Source: Acidobacteriota bacterium (GTDB taxonomy: Bacteria; Acidobacteriota; Terriglobia; Bryobacterales; Bryobacteraceae). From it: a stretch of 62,777 bases of DNA. Below the pieces are notes generated by a model, which was not told the origin of the DNA, did not search any database, and saw only the letters and a program-made list of their open reading frames with translations. Position numbers and translations under genes: made by a program. How positions within the stretch are numbered: position 1 is the stretch's first letter; each line of letters begins with the position of its first letter. The DNA lies in the NCBI GenBank assembly GCA_016871055.1, contig VFZW01000003.1, forward strand, positions 1 to 62,777, in the 5' to 3' direction. Positions 6,606-62,326 of the stretch are shown here, in pieces.

Positions 6606-7982
6606 CTACCCCAACACCTCCCGCACAACGCGCCCATGCACGTCCGTCAGCCTCATCTCCCGCCCGCTAAACGGATACGTCAGCCGCGTATGCTCAATCC
6701 CCAGCAAATGCAAAATCGTCGCATGTAAGTCATGCACATGCACGCGATTTTCGATCGCATAATACCCATACTCATCGGTCGCGCCAAACGTCAATCCCGC
6801 CTTCACGCCCGCGCCCGCCATCCACATCGAAAACCCGTACGGATGATGATCGCGCCCCACCGCCTCGCCCGAACCCTGCACGGTCGGCGAGCGCCCGAAT
6901 TCTCCCGTCCACACCACCAGCGTATCCTTCAACAACCCGCGCGCCTTCAAATCCGTCAGCAACGCCGCGATAGGCTTATCGGCCGCCTTCGCATTCCGCG
7001 TATGCCCGCGCTTCAGGTGCGCGTGTTGATCCCACCGGTCCTCGCCATCCTGTTTTGGCGACAACAACTCGACGAACCGCACGCCGCGCTCAACCAACCT
7101 CCGCGCCATCAGGCACGACCGCCCGTACTCTTCCGTTTCGGCTTCATCAAGGCCGTACAACTTGCGCGTCGCTTCGCTCTCGCCCGAGATGTCGGTCAAC
7201 TCCGGCACCGCCGCTTGCATCCGAAACGCCAGATCGTAATTGGAGATCGCCGCCTGCATCTCGCCGGCGCCGCCATAACGAGCCAGCGCGTCTCCATCGA
7301 ATTCGCGCAGCAGATCGAGCTTCGCCTTTTGCCGCGACGGAGCTTCACGCGGAGCCAGATCTGCCAACGGCTGCGCGCCGCGCCGAAACAGTGACGCCTG
7401 ATAACTCGCGGGCAGGAAACCGCTGCCGAAGATGTCGAGGCCGCCCGGCGGAATCATCCCGTTGTCAAGGACGACATACCCTGGCAGATTCCGTGATACA
7501 CTGCCCAACCCGTAGGTCACCCACGCTCCCATGCTCGGCCGGCCCTGCAAACCCGACCCGCTGTGCATGAAGTAATTCGCGGCTGTGTGCTCGGAGTGAT
7601 CGGCCACCATCGAACGAATGATGCAGAGATCGTCGGCGCACTTCGCGGTCTCTGGAAACAGGCTCGACACCGCCGCCCCGCTCTGCCCGTAACGCTGGAA
7701 TGCAAAGGGCGACGGATAGATCGACGTACTCACGGCGCGGACATGCTTCGGCCTCTCCAGCGGCAGCGGCTGACCGGCTTCGGCTTGCAAACGCGGCTTC
7801 GGATCGAAGCTGTCCACGTGCGACACGCCGCCATCCATGTACAGCAGGATCACCGACTTCGCCCGGCCCGCGAAATGGGATGCGCGCGGCGCCAATGGAT
7901 CGGTCACGCGCGTCTGCGCCGGCGCGTACTCGGCGTGCAGCGCCGCAAACGCTATTTGAAAAAAGTCTCGCCGCGTCGACAT
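6606..7982 (-). CDS. DUF1501 domain-containing secreted protein
   Basis: The 458-residue protein begins MSTRRDFFQIAFAAL, a twin-arginine type signal, followed by the DUF1501 hallmark KSVILLYMDGGVSHVDSFDP. Further family blocks are HSEHTAANYFMHSG, RFVELLSPKQDGEDRWDQH, LVVWTGEFGRSPTVQGSG and GRDHHPYGFSMWMAGAGVK. These are alkaline-phosphatase-like proteins that pair with PSD1/DUF1549/DUF1553 cytochrome proteins in Acidobacteria and Planctomycetes; their reaction is not established, though carbohydrate or sulfate-ester work is often suggested. It lies 5 bp downstream of the PSD1 gene in one operon. The ATG at 7982 gives the twin-arginine start. Confidence 0.9.
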   Translation of the reverse strand: MSTRRDFFQIAFAALHAEYAPAQTRVTDPLAPRASHFAGRAKSVILLYMDGGVSHVDSFDPKPRLQAEAGQPLPLERPKHVRAVSTSIYPSPFAFQRYGQSGAAVSSLFPETAKCADDLCIIRSMVADHSEHTAANYFMHSGSGLQGRPSMGAWVTYGLGSVSRNLPGYVVLDNGMIPPGGLDIFGSGFLPASYQASLFRRGAQPLADLAPREAPSRQKAKLDLLREFDGDALARYGGAGEMQAAISNYDLAFRMQAAVPELTDISGESEATRKLYGLDEAETEEYGRSCLMARRLVERGVRFVELLSPKQDGEDRWDQHAHLKRGHTRNAKAADKPIAALLTDLKARGLLKDTLVVWTGEFGRSPTVQGSGEAVGRDHHPYGFSMWMAGAGVKAGLTFGATDEYGYYAIENRVHVHDLHATILHLLGIEHTRLTYPFSGREMRLTDVHGRVVREVLG

Positions 7983-10826: not shown

Positions 10827-11396
10827 ATGCCGCAACTCAAGCCAGGTAATGAGAAGAAACCATCCCCGGCAACGTTGGTACCCATCAGTTACACACCGCC
10901 GAATAGCCTTGCGCACTTGATTGCGGATGGGGAGAACTGGCAGTCCCTTGCGGCTCGCTACGGAATGCCGGCCGTGGACATCATCAAGATGAATTTCAAG
11001 ACGGCGGACCCTTATGAGATCAACTGGTATCTACGGGAGTACGTCAACTGCAACACGCCGACTGCGGACGGGCATAACTGGCGCTTTTCAACGTCGGCCA
11101 GGAACGGCCCGAGCCCCCGGGCCGGCAAGATCTTCGTGAACCCGAATTGGACGACGATCTTGCGGGCCGCCAAGGAAGCGACGCGGGACTCGGTGGCGGA
11201 CTGGTTCCGGCAGATGTCGATCCGCGATGCAAAGGTGCTAGGCCCGGCGCTCACCATTCCTATGGGCTCCGTCAGTAGTGTGTTTATCACGCGGTGGCCA
11301 TTCACGCAGCGTTTGCGCAACGGCGGAGCCTCCGATCAGATGGCCGAGAAGTGGGCCGATTTTCTGGAAATGACTCTTCGCTCGTACACCGGGTAG
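10827..11396 (+). CDS. LysM-like domain protein, ends at in-frame amber
   Basis: The 189-residue product carries a LysM-like module at about residues 30-100: IADGENWQSLAARYGMP, INWYLREYVNC, TADGHNWRFS and RAGKIFVNP. This glycine/tryptophan pattern belongs to LysM-type proteins found with injection-system or cell-wall genes. The second half is unrecognised (SVSSVFITRWPFTQRL). There is no signal peptide. AGGAGG at 10813-10818 is an excellent ribosome-binding site and fixes the ATG. The TAG at 11394-11396 may be premature, because the same frame stays open and protein-like for another 121 codons. The gene stands alone between two leftward exported-protein blocks. Confidence 0.7.
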   Translation: MPQLKPGNEKKPSPATLVPISYTPPNSLAHLIADGENWQSLAARYGMPAVDIIKMNFKTADPYEINWYLREYVNCNTPTADGHNWRFSTSARNGPSPRAGKIFVNPNWTTILRAAKEATRDSVADWFRQMSIRDAKVLGPALTIPMGSVSSVFITRWPFTQRLRNGGASDQMAEKWADFLEMTLRSYTG

Positions 11397-51692: not shown

Positions 51693-52418
51693 CTATTCGC
51701 TGACCAAAACCGACATTGCGTTGCCAAAAATCTCCGCCGACCCGGCTGCGGCGATCCCGCGCCTCCGGTACGCCGCCTGCATTCGCGGCGCTGTTCCGCT
51801 CAGCCGGATTTCGATCATCCGCCGCCCGCCCGCCGGCAATCGAATTTCGCCGGAAGCCTTTCCAAGAGACGATTGTGGATACGCCGCCGCCGCGGGCGCC
51901 CCCAGGATTTCGATCACGCTGGCATCGGGGATAAGGATCGGCGTCGTGCCCCCGGCAATCAACTCAACCCGCGCGACGTTGCCAGTGCGCCCATCCCACC
52001 GCACGGCGAGCGTTTGCACCGGGGTCGCGGACGCCTCTTTCTCCGCCTGTTCCAAAGCGCGCGTAAATCGCGGCACCTTCGCAAGCACACCGGCGTCATG
52101 AATCAAGCGCAGTTGCTTCGGGCCCAGCGTCAACAGATGATTCGGCATGCCCGGCGCCAGCCGCGGACCCGCCGGCGCCTGCGCCGGAAAGTTCTTGATG
52201 AGCGCGTCGCGGACCGCGGCTGAAATCCGCCCGCTAAATACGCCGATCGCGCCGTCGCCCTTCGCAGCAGCCTGGCGCACCAACGTCCCGCGATCGCCCT
52301 CGATCTTCAAACTGGAATGCAGCGATGCCGGTCCGTCGAAAAACTCGTGGGAAAAAGTGAAATCCATGGCGCGGCCCTCCGCCGTAAGTATCAGCGCGAC
52401 GAAACTCCTGCGTCGCAT
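51693..52418 (-). CDS. Unknown protein, possible paralogue of the upstream gene
   Basis: This 241-residue protein (MRRRSFVALILTAEGRAMDF) has a beta-rich first half (FSHEFFDGPASLHSSLKIEG, IGVFSGRISAAVRDALIKNF), a linker helix (FTRALEQAEKEASATPVQTL), and a beta-sandwich second half (GNVARVELIAGGTTPILIPD, SGEIRLPAGGRRMIEIRLSG). The family is not recognised. The order of blocks parallels the 301-residue protein encoded just upstream, suggesting an old duplication. Its ATG shares one base with the upstream stop (TGATG). It may be cytoplasmic, as no clear signal peptide is seen. Confidence 0.6.
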   Translation of the reverse strand: MRRRSFVALILTAEGRAMDFTFSHEFFDGPASLHSSLKIEGDRGTLVRQAAAKGDGAIGVFSGRISAAVRDALIKNFPAQAPAGPRLAPGMPNHLLTLGPKQLRLIHDAGVLAKVPRFTRALEQAEKEASATPVQTLAVRWDGRTGNVARVELIAGGTTPILIPDASVIEILGAPAAAAYPQSSLGKASGEIRLPAGGRRMIEIRLSGTAPRMQAAYRRRGIAAAGSAEIFGNAMSVLVSE

Positions 52419-53323
52419 CAGGCGCCCACTTGGAACGAGAGCTCTTGACTGAAGACGGCGCCGCGCAAGCGGGCCACACCGGCGATCGTGTCCTCTCCGA
52501 AATAGTTCGAATAAACCGCGCGGGCCAGATATTCTCCTGGCTCGGGGCAATCGACTTCCGTTCTTAACTCGACCGTCTGCGACCCGCCCGGCGCCAGCCA
52601 TACGAACTGAATGCCGCTCTCCTCCGGAGCAAGAAGCGGCATCTCCTGCACTTCGATCGGCAGCGGCGTCACGCCTTCTTCGAGCTTCGGCCGGCGGCCG
52701 TAATAAAGCGAACAGCGCTCGTCGTAAACGGTCTGATTCAGCGTCCGCGGATGGGGGATCCAATACGGCTCGCGGCCTGTGTTGACAAACCGCAGTCTCG
52801 CCGGAATAATCTGCCGGCCCGGAACCGGCGCCGGCATCGAAAGTTCAACCGCAAGCGAACGGATCGGATTCTGTTTCGCGCGCTGCTCGATTTTCTGTAA
52901 GCGGTCAAGGAACGGAAACAAAGGCTCGAACAACTCGGCGTTGTTGCCGCCGATGAACTTCACCAGTTGCATTCCCCCCAACATCAGCGTGATGCGGATC
53001 CGCATGTCCATCGGCTCCAGCCGCACGGGCGGAATTTCGAACAGTCCGACCGCTTCAAGCAGATCGAGAAGTTCCGCGATCTCTTCCTTGGTCACCTGTC
53101 CGGCGAACTGCCCGATCGGATCGCCGCTGGCATCGGAAATGGAGCGCACGGTGGCGAAGTGGACCTCGCCGTTGCCAGTGATCGAGAGCCGCTCTTCATA
53201 GGCGCGGCCCGACGGCGCAAGCCCGGCGCCGTAGACGACATACCGTTCCAGACCAAAGCCCGCGAGCAGGGCGGGGTGCCCGGCCCGCGCCGCCGCCATC
53301 GCCTTCTTGAATATCGGATCCAT
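52418..53323 (-). CDS. Unknown protein with DUF6438-like front and beta-sandwich back
   Basis: The 301-residue protein begins MDPIFKKAMAAARAGHPALL. Residues about 40-110 (ERLSITGNGEVHFATVRSIS, GQVTKEEIAELLDLLEAVGL, FEIPPV) recall the DUF6438 type: a beta-strand pair, then a helix that measures an effect. After a helical linker (FLDRLQKIEQRAKQNPIRSL) comes an Ig-like domain (GRQIIPARLRFVNTGREPYW, GSQTVELRTEVDCPEPGEYL). No signal peptide is seen. It starts 2 nt behind the metallopeptidase stop. A partner or immunity role for the peptidase is possible but only inferred from position. Confidence 0.6.
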   Translation of the reverse strand: MDPIFKKAMAAARAGHPALLAGFGLERYVVYGAGLAPSGRAYEERLSITGNGEVHFATVRSISDASGDPIGQFAGQVTKEEIAELLDLLEAVGLFEIPPVRLEPMDMRIRITLMLGGMQLVKFIGGNNAELFEPLFPFLDRLQKIEQRAKQNPIRSLAVELSMPAPVPGRQIIPARLRFVNTGREPYWIPHPRTLNQTVYDERCSLYYGRRPKLEEGVTPLPIEVQEMPLLAPEESGIQFVWLAPGGSQTVELRTEVDCPEPGEYLARAVYSNYFGEDTIAGVARLRGAVFSQELSFQVGA

Positions 53324-53325
53324 CG

Positions 53326-54591
53326 TTAGTCGATCGCCTCGTAGACGTAGTCTTTGCCGTACTTTTTCTTGATGATACGCTTCGTCATCTCCACGATGCC
53401 ATGGTAGTGGCGTTTCTTGACCAGCTCGGTGCTGTTCATGATCGTGGTCGCGTCGATGCCGTTCACCGCGCCGTCGGTGTTAATTGTCGGATCCACCGCG
53501 CCGCCGGCGTATTCATCGGGATTGTCCAGATGGTGTCCCGCCTCGTGAGCGGCCATCTTCAGATCCGGATCGTCGAACGCGAAGTTGCCCGCATCCGAAC
53601 GCCAGCCGCCAGGCGCCATGTAGATGACATCGTCACCCGAGGTCGTCACCTCCGTGATTGTCATCGTCAGGTCGGTGTCGTACAAGCAGCAGCGAACGCC
53701 GTCGTCGGACCTGCACTCCTTGCGCTTGATCATCAGCGCATCGGTCCAGACGTCGTGCGCTTTCTGGCACCAGTCGGCTCGCTTCTTCACGTACTTGGCG
53801 TCGTTGAAATCGTAATCGGCGAAGGTCTCGGGCCACGTGCCGCCATACCGGGCCACGAACTTGGTTCCAGACTTCACGAACGTAGCGCCGAAATAGTTGG
53901 TTGCGCCCGGTGCAAAGCCGGCGGGCAGTGCGACCCAGGCGTTGCCGTCGTAATACTGGTCGGGCTGCATATGATTCAGATTCAGCGCGCGGCCCCACCG
54001 ATGTCCGTTCTCCGGACAGCCGCCCGCCTTGCCGTTAACGAAACCGGTCAGGTTGATCTTCGTCGCGCCCCAAGCTTTTCGTGCCTTGAGCGAAACCGTC
54101 ACCAGGTTCTTGAAATTCTCGATCTTCTGGTCCCACTTCGGGTCCATCGTGAATCCGCTCCAGTTACGGTGCGCGGTGAATGTCTGCTTATCGCCTTTGA
54201 TCAACCCATCGACGCGCAGCTTGGCTTCGGCGGTCCCGCCGCCGCCGGTCGCGATCGCCTTGAGCTCCTCGAATTCGAGAAAACTATCGTCGCTCTTCTG
54301 GAAACCGATGTTCTGGACTTTCCACTTCCACGAGCCCTTGCCATCGGTAAGCGCGATGTCGACCGCATCCGGCGGTGAATTCATGTCGACTAGAACCGCC
54401 GTGAACTCCACATGCGCCGAGTCGATGGGCAAGGACGTCTCGACCGTCAACTCGACCTCATCCCCGCAGACCGCCTTTTCCGGTTTCCACTTGACCAGAA
54501 TCGATCCTTGCGGCGTGATTCCGCCCGGCCGTTCGCACGGCGATACCTCGGCCAGGCGATGATAAAACCGGCACGCGAATGTGTCGCCCGT
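53326..54591 (-). CDS. Zinc metallopeptidase segment, in frame with the upstream OmpA gene after TAG
   Basis: The C-terminal part is a zinc peptidase with MAAHEAGHHLDNPDEYAGG (HExxH plus a nearby Asp/Glu), preceded by a beta-rich region (ILVKWKPEKAVCGDEVELTV, SWKWKVQNIGFQKSDDSFLE). Disulfide-type Cys pairs occur (RKECRSDDGVRCCLYD). The first usable start codon is a TTG at 54450, but protein-like sequence continues upstream in the same frame to the TAG at 54592, including DTFACRFYHRLAEVSPCE, which I know as the tail of OmpA/peptidoglycan-binding proteins. The segment is therefore probably the second half of one 730-codon gene (53326-55515) broken by an amber codon. The peptidase likely acts on cell-wall or surface proteins. 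Confidence 0.65.
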   Translation of the reverse strand, partial: TGDTFACRFYHRLAEVSPCERPGGITPQGSILVKWKPEKAVCGDEVELTVETSLPIDSAHVEFTAVLVDMNSPPDAVDIALTDGKGSWKWKVQNIGFQKSDDSFLEFEELKAIATGGGGTAEAKLRVDGLIKGDKQTFTAHRNWSGFTMDPKWDQKIENFKNLVTVSLKARKAWGATKINLTGFVNGKAGGCPENGHRWGRALNLNHMQPDQYYDGNAWVALPAGFAPGATNYFGATFVKSGTKFVARYGGTWPETFADYDFNDAKYVKKRADWCQKAHDVWTDALMIKRKECRSDDGVRCCLYDTDLTMTITEVTTSGDDVIYMAPGGWRSDAGNFAFDDPDLKMAAHEAGHHLDNPDEYAGGAVDPTINTDGAVNGIDATTIMNSTELVKKRHYHGIVEMTKRIIKKKYGKDYVYEAID

Positions 54592-55515
54592 CTAATCGAA
54601 CGTACGCGGATTCGCTTGCGGATTCCGCCGCTTCTCGCCGTCGCTCCAGAAACGCCCCTTGCACGCCGAGACCCCTTCGGAAACGCGCGGGCAGGGCCAG
54701 TCGGAAGGCATCGTCGAGCCGGCCGGAAAGAGATACGCGAGCACGCGCCGGTTGACCGAATTGCGTTCGTTGCGTTGGCCATGCTTGGCCGGCTGTTGCA
54801 ACGTGGTGTTCTCAGAAATCGAAAACACCATCGTCGGGTTAAATTCACTGCACCCCTGGATGTCGCCTTTGCCGCCCGAGTCGGCCCCCTTGTTGAGGAA
54901 GTCGGACTTGGTGCACGCTGCCGGCCACAGGTAGGCCATGTAGTCCGGGATTAGCGCCTTCCGCGTGTTGGCGCCCGCGGAGCCGTCCGCCGTCAGTCCC
55001 TTGGATTGTTGAAAGCTCTTGATCGCGTCCGTCGAGGTCGCGCTCGCTGATCCCGATGTTCCCCCGGTGTCGAAACCGAGGGCGGTCAACATCATCTGCG
55101 TTTCCCGCAGACCCCACGTTTTTCCGGCCGGTGCGGCTGTGAAAAACTTATCCCACGGCGCCGGGTCGCGCAGAAGGATAGCGTAAATAACCTCGGCGCG
55201 ACGGCCGCTCAGCGACTTGTTATACGTCTCGTCGCCGGTCGGATCGGCGTGACCGAACAGCGACATCGGGCAGCCCGGATGAGCGGCCCGAAGCGCGGCC
55301 AGCTCGGCGAGTTCGGCCTTGGCTTCCGGCCGGACAAAGCAGGAGTCGAAATCGAAACGCCCATCGTCGAGCTTCCAGCATGCCTCCGGCCGAGGCTGTC
55401 GCATGATGACGTTCTTTTCGCCTCTGGTTGTTGGTGAAAGGTAGACTGTTTGGTTCGGACGTGCGGGGTGACTTGCGGCGTGCCCGGCTTCGAGTTTCTT
55501 GTCTCCGTATGCCAT
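54592..55515 (-). CDS. OmpA-like / peptidoglycan-binding domain protein, ends at amber
   Basis: This 307-residue protein has an OmpA-type domain at about 45-125 (DSCFVRPEAKAELAELAALR, CPMSLFGHADPTGDETYNKS, LSGRRAEVIYAILLRD) and a peptidoglycan-binding-1 helical repeat at about 140-190 (GLRETQMMLTALGFD, IKSFQQSKGLTADGSAGANT). The Cys-containing C-terminal region (GCSEFNPTMVFSISENT, NSVNRRVLAYLFPAG) runs up to GRFWSDGEKRRNPQANPRTF and then TAG. The pattern is that of proteins encoded beside type VI or phage-tail-like secretion genes. There is no signal peptide, which also fits delivery by such a system. It starts 4 nt behind the LysM gene. Confidence 0.75.
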   Translation of the reverse strand: MAYGDKKLEAGHAASHPARPNQTVYLSPTTRGEKNVIMRQPRPEACWKLDDGRFDFDSCFVRPEAKAELAELAALRAAHPGCPMSLFGHADPTGDETYNKSLSGRRAEVIYAILLRDPAPWDKFFTAAPAGKTWGLRETQMMLTALGFDTGGTSGSASATSTDAIKSFQQSKGLTADGSAGANTRKALIPDYMAYLWPAACTKSDFLNKGADSGGKGDIQGCSEFNPTMVFSISENTTLQQPAKHGQRNERNSVNRRVLAYLFPAGSTMPSDWPCPRVSEGVSACKGRFWSDGEKRRNPQANPRTFD

Positions 55516-57197: not shown

Positions 57198-58511
57198 ATG
57201 ACCACCTGGGATCAGATCAAACAACAACTCGCGCGGAACGTGAGCGCCGAGAGTTTTCAAAACTGGATCGCGCCGACCGAACAGCGCGAAGAATTTGGCG
57301 GAACCGTTGTCGTCCGTGTTCCGAGCGACGCCGCCAAAACGTGGATGGAACAGGAGTACGCCGAGAACATCCATTCGGCGATCCGGGCGATGCAGTTGAA
57401 CGTAAAAAGTGTGGTCTACGAAGTTGGCGCGGCGCCCGCGCCGCTTGCGAATCTGGTTGCCGATCGCCCGCAGAGCGAAATTCAGTTTTCACCGGCGGCT
57501 TCGCTGCTCAACGCCAAATACAGCTTCGCGAACTTCGTCGTCGGGTCGTGTAATCAGTTTGCGCACGCCGCCGCCCGCGCGGTTGCCGATAAACCGGCCG
57601 AGCGCTACAACCCGTTGTTTATCTATGGCGGCGTCGGAATGGGAAAAACACATCTGATGCACGCAATCGGACGGGCGTTGATGGAACGGTCCCCCGGGTC
57701 GCGCGTGGTTTACACATCGAGCGAACGGTTTATGAACGAGATGATCGCCTGCATCCGCACTGATCGCATGAGCCAGTTCCATAAGCATTACCGAAAGGCT
57801 GACGCGCTGCTGGTCGACGATGTCCAGATTCTAGCCGGCCGAGAACGGACGCAGGAAGAGTTCTTCCATACTTTCAACGAGTTACACGAACACGGCAAAC
57901 AGATTGTCATCTCGTCCGACCAATCGCCGAAGAACGTACAAGGCTTGATGGACCGGCTTCGCAGCCGCTTCGAGTGGGGACTGATGGTCGATGTGCAGCC
58001 GCCGGATCTCGAAACGAAAATGGCGATCCTGGACAAGAAGGCAGAGGCGGAAGGCGTACGTCTGCCGGAGGAGGTTCGCATCCACATCGCGACGAAGACG
58101 AAGTCCAACGTCCGCGAGCTCGAAGGCGCGCTGGTGAAGTTGATCGCCTACTCCAGCGTGACGGAATCCCCAATCACGTTGGCGATGACGCAGCAGGTAT
58201 TAAAGAACTTGAGCGCCGGATCGGAACGCCGCATCACAATTGAGGCCATCGTGAAAGCGGTAGCAGATAAATTTGGCATGCAGCCGGCGCAACTCAAGTT
58301 AAAGACGAACGTGCAGAACATCGCCTATCCACGTCAGATCGCGATGTACCTGGCCAAGGAACTGACGCCGGCGTCGTTGCCGGAGATCGGCCGGCACTTT
58401 GCCAACAAGCATCACACGACGGTCCTGCATTCGATCCAGAAGATCGAGAAGCTCCGGCAGCATGATAGCGATCTGAACAGGCTTATCCACAGCGTGATCG
58501 ATGCGTTTTGA
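57198..58511 (+). CDS. dnaA: Chromosomal replication initiator protein DnaA
   Basis: The 437-residue protein has all DnaA domains. Domain I is at about 1-75 (TTWDQIKQQLARNVSAESFQ). After a short linker, the AAA+ domain begins with KYSFANFVVGSCNQFAHAAA, Walker A YGGVGMGKTHLMHAIG and Walker B LLVDDVQILAGRE. Domain IV has the DNA-binding signature LPEIGRHFANKHHTTVLHSI. It melts the origin and loads the helicase. Domain II is short. The signature has His where Asp of the usual R-D-H-T-T-V motif stands. A perfect TTATCCACA box lies inside the last codons. Confidence 0.97.
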   Translation: MTTWDQIKQQLARNVSAESFQNWIAPTEQREEFGGTVVVRVPSDAAKTWMEQEYAENIHSAIRAMQLNVKSVVYEVGAAPAPLANLVADRPQSEIQFSPAASLLNAKYSFANFVVGSCNQFAHAAARAVADKPAERYNPLFIYGGVGMGKTHLMHAIGRALMERSPGSRVVYTSSERFMNEMIACIRTDRMSQFHKHYRKADALLVDDVQILAGRERTQEEFFHTFNELHEHGKQIVISSDQSPKNVQGLMDRLRSRFEWGLMVDVQPPDLETKMAILDKKAEAEGVRLPEEVRIHIATKTKSNVRELEGALVKLIAYSSVTESPITLAMTQQVLKNLSAGSERRITIEAIVKAVADKFGMQPAQLKLKTNVQNIAYPRQIAMYLAKELTPASLPEIGRHFANKHHTTVLHSIQKIEKLRQHDSDLNRLIHSVIDAF

Positions 58512-58759
58512 GAGACTTAGGCGTGGTTTCCACAGCCAGGGTCGATTTGGGGTTGAGGAAGCTTGTGGAACAGTTGAGGCGCCGAAATCTTCCGCAACTT
58601 CCCTCAACAAAATCCGCAGTCGTGTGTGGCGGGAAGCACTTTGGTTTTGTATAATTTAGAGAGAATTCAACATATCCACAACTCCTACGATTCCGGTACA
58701 GTAATTGTTCTCTTCATTCTCTACTAAGAAACCGGAAGAGCAGAGCAAAGGCGGCAACA
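58483..58759. promoter_or_regulatory. dnaA-dnaN intergenic region, probable oriC with DnaA boxes
   Basis: DnaA-box matches cluster here: TTATCCACA (58483-58491, inside the dnaA end), GTTTCCACA (58526-58534), TGTGGAACA (58564-58572, reverse strand) and ATATCCACA (58672-58680). An AT-rich run at about 58640-58735 could be the unwinding element. A perfect -10 hexamer TATAAT (58650-58655) in the same run probably serves dnaN, although no good -35 is visible. Location between dnaA and dnaN is a frequent origin position. Confidence 0.65.
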
Positions 58760-59875
58760 ATGGAATTCACAATCAATCGAGCGGACCTGGTGCGCGAACT
58801 GGCGCTCTCGCAAGGCGTTGTCGAGAAGAAGTCCACGATTCCAATTTTGTCGAACGTGCTGATCGAGGCTGAGGAGGATCGCATCGTCCTCACCGCCACC
58901 GATCTGGAGCTTGGCATACGCACGGCCTGTCCGGCGAAGGTGAAGAAGGCGGGGTCGGGTACCATCCCGGCCAAGAAACTGATGGACTACGTCCGCCTGC
59001 TTCCGGAAGGCGAGATCGTCGTCAAGTTCGGCGATAACCAGTGGGCGTCGTTGACCTGCGGCAAATCGAAAACGCGCATCGCCGGCATGAGCCGCGAGAG
59101 TTTTCCCGAGTTGCCGGAGATGCCCGCGCTGATCGCGCAGCTTCCCGTCAAGGTTCTCGCCGGCATGATCCAGCGAACGATCTTTTCCATCTCCGCGGAA
59201 GAATCGCGCTTCACGCTAAATGGCGCGCTGCTGCTGGTCCGGCCCGAGGGTCTGGTGATGGTTTCGACCGACAGCCACCGCCTGGCGGCCGTCGAGGCGC
59301 CGCTCGAGCTGCAGCTGCAAAATAACGAACCCTTCCGCGCGCTGCTTCCGCGCAAGGCGATGAACGAGCTAATGAAGGTCGCCGCCGAATCGGCCGAAGG
59401 AACGATGATGTCGTTCGCGGGCGACGAGAACCACCTATTCTTCCAGATCGGCGACCGCCTGCTGATCGGCCGCAAGCTGACCGGCAATTTCCCCGACTAC
59501 GAACGCGTCCTGCCGAAAGAACACGCCAATGTCATCGTGCTGGCCAAGGACGTCCTGCGCGGCTCGCTCGAACGCGTCATGCAGTTCTCCGACGAACGTT
59601 CCCGCGCCATCAAGTTCCGCGCGGCCGATGGCGAGGTGACCTTACACTCGTCGCTGTCGGAGACCGGCGAATCGGAAGAGACGATTACGGTCGACTACAA
59701 CGGCGCCAAGGTCGATATCGGCTTCAACGCCCAGTACATTCTCGATTTTCTCCGGGCCATCGACGAGCCCTCAGTGACTTTCCACTTCAAAGATTCCGGC
59801 GCGGCCGGCGAACTTCGCCCCGCCGGCGACACCAACCTCAAATACCGGTATGTCGTCATGCCGATGCGGATCTGA
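58760..59875 (+). CDS. dnaN: DNA polymerase III subunit beta (sliding clamp)
   Basis: The 371-residue protein shows the three-fold clamp architecture. Domain I opens MEFTINRADLVRELALSQGV with IPILSNVLIEAEEDRIVLTA. Domain II includes FSISAEESRFTLNGALLL and VSTDSHRLAAVEAPLEL. Domain III ends with VTFHFKDSGAAGELRPAGDT and the conserved last strand YRYVVMPMRI. It forms the ring that tethers DNA polymerase III. An AAAGGCGG lies just before the ATG. It follows dnaA across the probable origin; no recF lies between it and gyrB. Confidence 0.97.
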   Translation: MEFTINRADLVRELALSQGVVEKKSTIPILSNVLIEAEEDRIVLTATDLELGIRTACPAKVKKAGSGTIPAKKLMDYVRLLPEGEIVVKFGDNQWASLTCGKSKTRIAGMSRESFPELPEMPALIAQLPVKVLAGMIQRTIFSISAEESRFTLNGALLLVRPEGLVMVSTDSHRLAAVEAPLELQLQNNEPFRALLPRKAMNELMKVAAESAEGTMMSFAGDENHLFFQIGDRLLIGRKLTGNFPDYERVLPKEHANVIVLAKDVLRGSLERVMQFSDERSRAIKFRAADGEVTLHSSLSETGESEETITVDYNGAKVDIGFNAQYILDFLRAIDEPSVTFHFKDSGAAGELRPAGDTNLKYRYVVMPMRI

Positions 59876-59893
59876 AGCGTTACCTAGGAATAA

Positions 59894-62326
<2,433 letters not shown>

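What the first reader, a model, noticed from the sequence alone, without database searches (positions are those of the whole stretch)
53326..55515. OmpA/peptidoglycan-binding protein and zinc metallopeptidase are one frame split by a TAG
The OmpA-like gene stops at TAG 54592-54594, but the same frame stays open for 421 more codons. The residues just after the stop (DTFACRFYHRLAEVSPCE) are ones I associate with the tail of the OmpA/peptidoglycan-binding family, and no ATG, GTG or TTG occurs until 54450. So the stop sits inside a conserved block, upstream of the HEAGHH peptidase. Explanations are a nonsense mutation, suppressor readthrough that switches between a short binding protein and a long binding-plus-protease form, or a sequence error.
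Basis: partly seen in the sequence, partly recalled or inferred. Interest (0 to 1): 0.7.

Follow-up and report, generated by a model that had tools for sequence, protein, structure and literature searches.

The report
Effector gene cut by nonsense codon
A gene that relatives read as one long protein, probably a weapon of a bacterial secretion system, is cut in two by a stop codon in this acidobacterial draft genome; it looks like an ordinary recent nonsense mutation in a genome with many broken genes, not a programmed switch.

Summary
A TAG at 54592-54594 (minus strand) splits one gene: the frame stays open for 421 codons and the first in-frame start is the TTG at 54450. Two orthologues with the same tail (L043, L045) run through without a stop. 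Of 60 fetched stretches, 56 cover the site; all 56 read on. The gene belongs to an OmpA/peptidoglycan-binding trunk family with exchangeable tails. Its upstream neighbour resembles VgrG tails and a vgrG-linked LysM protein, so it is probably a type VI secretion effector with a putative immunity gene downstream. TAG is an ordinary terminator here, RF1 is present, and no CUA tRNA was found in an incomplete tRNA set. In 1.27 Mb of this genome, 15 homologue-bridged in-frame stops (11 TAG) and 11 frameshift rows were listed, against 1 and 0 in 1.13 Mb of relatives. One lies in a vgrG. The tail shows no relaxed constraint. Best reading: a recent nonsense mutation, one of many in a decaying or imperfectly assembled genome. 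Programmed read-through is unsupported.

The parts
54595..55515 (-). Trunk ORF, 307 aa: OmpA domain (aa 53-120), PG_binding_1 (aa 137-188), then a family-specific region; ends at the TAG
54592..54594 (-). In-frame TAG; no stop there in 56 of 56 homologous copies that cover the site (60 stretches fetched)
54532..54585 (-). Conserved junction block DTFACRFYHRLAEVSPCE, downstream of the TAG, shared by the trunk family
53329..54591 (-). Open frame of 421 codons after the TAG: junction block, predicted beta-rich segment (aa 31-128; poor model overall), HEXXH metallopeptidase-like C-terminal part; TAA at 53326-53328
53530..53547 (-). HEAGHH (HEXXH) motif, followed by PDEY; HE.GH and PDEY are the same in 4 of 4 aligned tails
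54448..54450 (-). First possible in-frame start (TTG) after the TAG; GAGG lies five bases before it
52418..53323 (-). Downstream gene (301 aa), putative immunity partner: a homologue follows the same tail in L043 and (its start only, at the contig edge) L045, and an unfused relative of the peptidase in L184
55520..56761 (-). Upstream gene (413 aa): one part resembling the VgrG C-terminal extension, one part resembling a LysM/PG-binding protein encoded next to vgrG

Best explanation
A recent nonsense mutation has interrupted a single gene. In relatives this gene encodes one protein: an OmpA/peptidoglycan-binding trunk, a conserved junction block and a zinc-metallopeptidase-like tail. It lies in a cargo locus that looks linked to type VI secretion, and the gene after it is a likely immunity partner. 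In this genome the ribosome should stop at the TAG and make a 307-aa trunk that lacks the junction block and the peptidase. The effector function is then probably lost while the putative immunity gene stays open. Shown: the split frame, the intact orthologues, the absence of the stop from the family, the intact and constrained tail, and other disrupted genes in the same genome. Inferred: loss of function, type VI delivery, peptidase activity, immunity role.
For: Orthologues L043 and L045 are one open frame with the same tail; the same downstream gene follows. 56 of 56 copies covering the site read through it; in the 45 with the exact motif the residue there varies (D17, E7, T7, Q6, K4, A2, V1, L1). 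Amino-acid distance on the window branch is 0.468 in the trunk and 0.393 in the tail (ratio 0.84), against 0.279 and 0.223 (0.80) between the intact pair, so no long relaxation is seen. With 144 one-step paths to a further stop, the neutral age is under about 0.06 substitutions per site at 5%. RF1 is present; no CUA tRNA among 38 hits or by pattern; TAG ends 268 of 799 gene-like ORFs, against 87 of 236 in G017 and 102 of 354 in other relatives. In 1.27 Mb of this genome, 15 homologue-bridged in-frame stops and 11 frameshift rows, against 1 and 0 in 1.13 Mb of relatives (one-sided p 1e-4 and 2e-4). Stop types roughly follow codon usage (expected TAG 0.54; seen 11 of 14 curated, p 0.054; 11 of 21 in the homology-free scan). 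Three genes carry two disruptions each, which favours real decay.
Against: No reads or second assembly of this allele were available; the closest genome, G007, has a different trunk allele at this locus and its contig ends inside it. The raised disruption rate could mean poor consensus quality instead. It depends on the sense-frame filter (unfiltered bridged stops: 15, 4, 4 and 34 in ownA, ownB, G017, relatives), and the homology-free scan shows only a weak excess: 21 of 799 ends, against 1 of 236 (G017) and 7 of 354 (other relatives). TAG is slightly over-represented (11 of 14, p 0.054) and slightly rarer as terminator than in G017 in one scan (211 of 632 against 108 of 267, p 0.047). The tail shows no decay of its own, which would also fit read-through.
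Confidence: 0.7

Rival explanations
1. Consensus or assembly error in a draft genome: the TAG is not in the organism.
For: The genome is a 713-contig draft. Both in-frame stops and frameshifts are raised against the control sequence. The own C11 trunk copy has a frameshift at or near a T-run.
Against: Three genes carry two disruptions each (expected 0.4, P 0.005; 0.7, P 0.03 if only genes over 400 aa count), which suggests real pseudogenes. Six window genes align to G007 without a frame change (one of them across two contigs). Contamination is 0.49%.
Confidence: 0.18
2. Split but working pair: a 307-aa trunk and a separately started peptidase (TTG 54450).
For: A GAGG lies five bases before the TTG at 54450. 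An unfused relative of the peptidase exists (L139/L184). A trunk-only copy exists (L086).
Against: The trunk-only copy L086 keeps the junction block that the window's short product lacks. A TTG start would drop 47 residues, the junction block included. Both full-length orthologues are fused.
Confidence: 0.06
3. Stop-codon read-through (suppressor tRNA or leaky TAG) makes a minor long form.
For: The tail is intact and constrained. TAG is 11 of 14 curated in-frame stops. In-frame stops in genes under purifying selection are reported in bacteria (PMC7918605, abstract and passages read).
Against: The stop is in none of 56 homologous copies, whereas that paper counted only stops present in two or more genomes. 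RF1 is present, no CUA tRNA was found, TAG is a normal terminator, there is no notable structure (z -0.75), and frameshifts are raised as well. The tRNA set is incomplete (no Tyr, Phe or Lys-UUU gene among the hits), so absence is not proof.
Confidence: 0.06

Closest known systems
Polymorphic toxin systems (Zhang et al. 2012, PMC3482391; passages read; author name recalled)
   Same: Conserved N-terminal part, exchangeable C-terminal domains (HExxH metallopeptidases among those listed), a downstream partner gene, sharp allele replacement between close relatives. The paper mentions PGB1 and LysM domains in toxin polypeptides.
   Different: The trunk is OmpA plus PG_binding_1, not one of the trafficking domains named in the passages I read; there an OmpA domain is described as a C-terminal toxin domain.
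In-frame stop codons in bacterial genes (Belinky et al. 2021, PMC7918605; abstract and passages read)
   Same: A single in-frame stop in an otherwise constrained gene.
   Different: Those cases need the stop in two or more genomes; here it is in one only.
VgrG-linked cargo adaptors of type VI secretion (the kind is recalled, not looked up)
   Same: The upstream gene resembles VgrG C-terminal extensions (40%, E 2e-13 and 1e-10) and the LysM-like protein encoded next to vgrG1 (33%, E 3e-29).
   Different: The locus is beside dnaA, not in the vgrG/TssC cluster on contig C19; no secretion was tested.

Membership tests
Polymorphic effector (trunk plus exchangeable tail) | Conserved N-terminal trunk with many different C-terminal tails | tested here: met
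   56 of 60 fetched stretches cover the trunk end; where the motif was found (54), the frame runs on for 30 to 1616 aa from its start, some cut by contig ends
Polymorphic effector (trunk plus exchangeable tail) | Tail-specific partner gene downstream | tested here: met
   The downstream gene follows this tail in L043 and L045 (start only, at the contig edge) and the unfused L184 relative (25%, E 5e-12); at 1e-4 it matched only L043 among the 60 stretches
Polymorphic effector (trunk plus exchangeable tail) | Toxicity neutralised by the partner | not testable with these tools
   needs the bench
Type VI secretion cargo | T6SS present in carriers | tested here: met
   TssC (PF05943) in 18 of 19 genus genomes; the 18 trunk carriers of the genus all have it. 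Weak evidence, since 42 of 61 family genomes have TssC too
Type VI secretion cargo | Physical or sequence link to VgrG/PAAR | tested here: met
   By sequence only: the upstream gene resembles VgrG tails and a vgrG-adjacent LysM-like protein. No VgrG or PAAR among the 8 window proteins scanned
Type VI secretion cargo | Secretion by the T6SS | not testable with these tools
   needs the bench
Zinc metallopeptidase (zincin) | HEXXH with a third ligand in a zincin fold | tested here: inconclusive
   HE.GH and PDEY identical in 4 of 4 tails; no peptidase match in Pfam; PDB profile hits (zinc proteases 1c7k, 4hx3) only at E 0.8 over 21 residues; model too poor (mean pLDDT 40)
Programmed stop-codon read-through | Stop conserved across orthologues | tested here: not met
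   0 of 56 copies covering the site have a stop there
TAG reassignment or suppression | Cognate CUA tRNA | tested here: inconclusive
   None among 38 RF00005 hits (one unassigned) or by one pattern, but the draft is 95.7% complete and several expected tRNAs are missing
TAG reassignment or suppression | TAG depleted as terminator | tested here: not met
   TAG ends 268 of 799 gene-like ORFs, against 87 of 236 and 102 of 354 in relatives

The most novel reading that the evidence does not exclude
This acidobacterial lineage tolerates UAG genome-wide through weak read-through, so that many genes, T6SS cargo and a VgrG among them, are expressed at low level across in-frame TAGs. In the homology-based list 11 of 14 curated in-frame stops are TAG (p 0.054), and the tail tested here looks constrained.
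Probability: 0.05. Interest if true: 0.7.

Novelty: new member of a known kind. Interest (0 to 1): 0.22.

Why it matters
It separates a tempting recoding story from ordinary gene loss. The same draft has homologue-bridged stops and frameshifts at a rate above its relatives, so single stops in this assembly should not be read as regulation. Along the way it shows an OmpA/peptidoglycan-binding trunk family (21 of 101 genomes searched, one to ten matches each) with exchangeable tails in T6SS-bearing Acidobacteria, which may be a useful handle for effector discovery.

Tried and rejected
Natural end at the TAG: rejected, 56 of 56 copies covering the site read on. Code change: rejected as the main reading. 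TAG excess as evidence of suppression: the excess is about what codon usage predicts. Local RNA structure at the stop: nothing unusual. Naming the peptidase family: Pfam, NCBIfam, PHROGs, PDB sequence and plasmid searches gave nothing firm (the trunk had no plasmid match either); the AlphaFold model was poor, so no fold search was made. The full tail was seen in three genus genomes, with a partial relative in a fourth; an even draw of 396 phylum genomes gave only the own genome and one weak hit. The first coding-potential thresholds missed the known case and were loosened. The first homologue scan gave many wrong-frame matches in the relatives set and was replaced by a sense-frame filter, which dropped 2 of 15, 2 of 4, 4 of 4 and 33 of 34 bridged stops in ownA, ownB, G017 and the other relatives. 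I looked at the dropped rows afterwards (of the 33 relatives' rows it printed 32): nearly all are wrong reading frames with clearly negative coding margins on at least one side. One dropped own row (L196 6781) looks like a real stop, and L070 8772 sits at a gene start. In one search, L222 is probably a gene boundary and L086 a natural end; both are left out of the 14 against 0 count. Several frameshift rows rest on one subject at about 30% identity and are weak, and the two L258 rows are one place. The "5 frameshifts" line is my own hand count.

Full report
Observation. On the minus strand, the ORF 54592-55515 (307 aa, ATG) ends in TAG 54592-54594. The same frame is open for 421 codons to the TAA at 53326-53328. 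The first in-frame ATG/GTG/TTG after the stop is the TTG at 54450. The first part has an OmpA and a PG_binding_1 domain; the second has no Pfam match at 0.01 but an HEAGHH motif. The window is a whole contig of a 7.14 Mb, 713-contig draft. It lies among Acidobacteria: three homologous loci in genome contigs are Acidobacteria MAGs, and their contig lengths coincide with those of three genus relatives.

One gene in relatives. A search of 101 genomes, the own one included, found the trunk in 21. Sixty stretches holding matches were fetched. Four do not reach the trunk end (L040, L042, L053, L096). All 56 others read on in frame past the TAG position: 54 by the motif, L061 and L091 by reading the frame. 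One of the 54, L038, has a frameshift further upstream. In the 45 copies that begin exactly DTF, ten positions of the block after the stop are invariant, and the residue at the stop position is variable and always sense. Two copies, L043 (G014) and L045 (G002), carry the same metallopeptidase-like tail over its whole length (59-61% identity) in uninterrupted frames of 730 and 732 aa. The same downstream gene follows, in L045 only its start before the contig edge.

Age and constraint. With L043 and L045, the window branch has an amino-acid distance of 0.468 in the trunk and 0.393 in the tail (ratio 0.84). The intact pair has 0.279 and 0.223 (0.80). GC3 of the tail is 0.80. The tail has therefore not been evolving freely for long. 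With 144 one-step paths to a further stop and none taken, the neutral age is below about 0.06 substitutions per site at the 5% level. Synonymous distances to these relatives are large or saturated, so dN/dS was not used.

What the locus is. Copies of the trunk occur with very different tails, from 30 to 1616 aa counted from the motif. In G007, whose flanking genes are 96-99% identical in protein, DNA identity per 100 bases falls from 0.86-0.99 to 0.60-0.73 within about 100 bases of the trunk start, then lower. That is allele replacement, as in polymorphic effectors. The upstream gene combines a part like the VgrG C-terminal extension (40%, E 2e-13 and 1e-10) with a part like the LysM-like/PG-binding protein encoded next to vgrG1 (33%, E 3e-29). 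TssC is present in 18 of 19 genus genomes, including all 18 trunk carriers of the genus, though it is common in the family anyway (42 of 61). The downstream gene also has a relative after an unfused relative of the peptidase in G004 (25%, E 5e-12). A type VI effector with an immunity partner is the likely reading. Delivery, toxicity and immunity are inferred.

Is the stop read through? RF1 is present. RF00005 gave 38 tRNA hits, none with CUA, one without an assigned anticodon. A CUA-type pattern found only a place on contig C48 that is the tRNA-Glu. The tRNA set is incomplete (no Tyr, Phe or Lys-UUU gene among the hits), so absence is not proof. TAG ends 268 of 799 gene-like ORFs, against 87 of 236 in G017 and 102 of 354 in other relatives; an earlier scan gave 211 of 632 against 108 of 267 in G017 (p 0.047). 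The 161-base RNA around the stop folds no better than shuffles (z -0.75).

A genome-wide pattern. A vgrG on contig C19 also has a TAG inside its conserved domain, where the 95%-identical G007 gene has a sense codon. I therefore scanned 1.27 Mb of this genome, about 18% (873,559 and 400,000 bases), against 400,000 bases of G017 and 732,668 bases of mixed relatives. Using blastx with a sense-frame filter, the own genome shows 13 plus 2 bridged in-frame stops and 8 plus 3 frameshift rows over about 192,000 covered codons. G017 shows 0 and 0 over about 53,000, and the relatives 1 (a natural end, L086) and 0 over about 166,000. One-sided p is 1e-4 for stops and 2e-4 for frameshift rows. Before the filter the bridged stops were 15, 4, 4 and 34; the dropped rows are nearly all wrong reading frames. 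Leaving out L222 and L086, 11 of 14 stops are TAG, where codon usage predicts 0.54 (p 0.054). A homology-free scan gives 11 TAG, 5 TAA and 5 TGA in the own genome, some of them gene boundaries; that is 21 of 799 ends, against 1 of 236 in G017 and 7 of 354 in the other relatives, so this scan alone shows little excess. Three genes have two disruptions each (L192, L209, L193), more than expected (P 0.005, or 0.03 for genes over 400 aa only). The own C11 trunk copy is frameshifted. The window TAG is thus one of many disruptions, and it needs no special mechanism. G017 is a better assembly (40 contigs), and the relatives set is biased to effector loci; both limit the control.

Verdict. Nonsense mutation in an effector-like gene, recent, in a genome with a raised load of broken genes (0.7). 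Draft error is the main rival (0.18). Read-through (0.06) and a split working pair (0.06) are unsupported. From the literature I read the abstract, outline and passages of PMC7918605 and passages of PMC3482391; other papers were seen only in search listings. In the listings I saw no title or abstract start that describes this trunk family; no wider claim is made. The label "zinc metallopeptidase" rests on the motif and on recalled knowledge.

Noticed in passing
L187 9684-9686 (own contig C19): A vgrG of the C19 cluster has an in-frame TAG within the Phage_GPD domain; the orthologue in G007 is open there.
   Followed up: yes
own genome, loci L038, L192, L193, L195, L196, L206, L209, L220, L255, L263: Homologue-bridged in-frame stops in other genes (by look: TonB-receptor-like, sugar-isomerase-like, sialidase-like; PQQ dehydrogenase in L206 by Pfam) and several frameshift candidates, above the relatives.
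   Followed up: partly
window about 55505, against L053: Sharp identity drop at the trunk gene start between sister genomes: allele replacement beside dnaA.
   Followed up: partly
window 57198-62326: dnaA (Pfam) and two genes that I take for dnaN and gyrB (by position and recall) lie directly beside the effector-like locus, so it may sit near the replication origin.
   Followed up: no
L117 795-889; L198 around 18464; L213 around 12422: The genome has a tRNA-Sec gene; a TGA in an AhpC/TSA-like protein (SADW*PYCK) and one in a rhodanese-like protein may be selenocysteine codons.
   Followed up: partly
window 11394-11396: A second possible in-frame TAG (+ strand, open 193 codons before and 120 after) by coding potential in one scan only; no Pfam match on either side, and not in the stricter scans.
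   Followed up: partly
L038 about 6767-6794 (own contig C11): Another trunk copy in the same genome is frameshifted at or near a T-run.
   Followed up: partly
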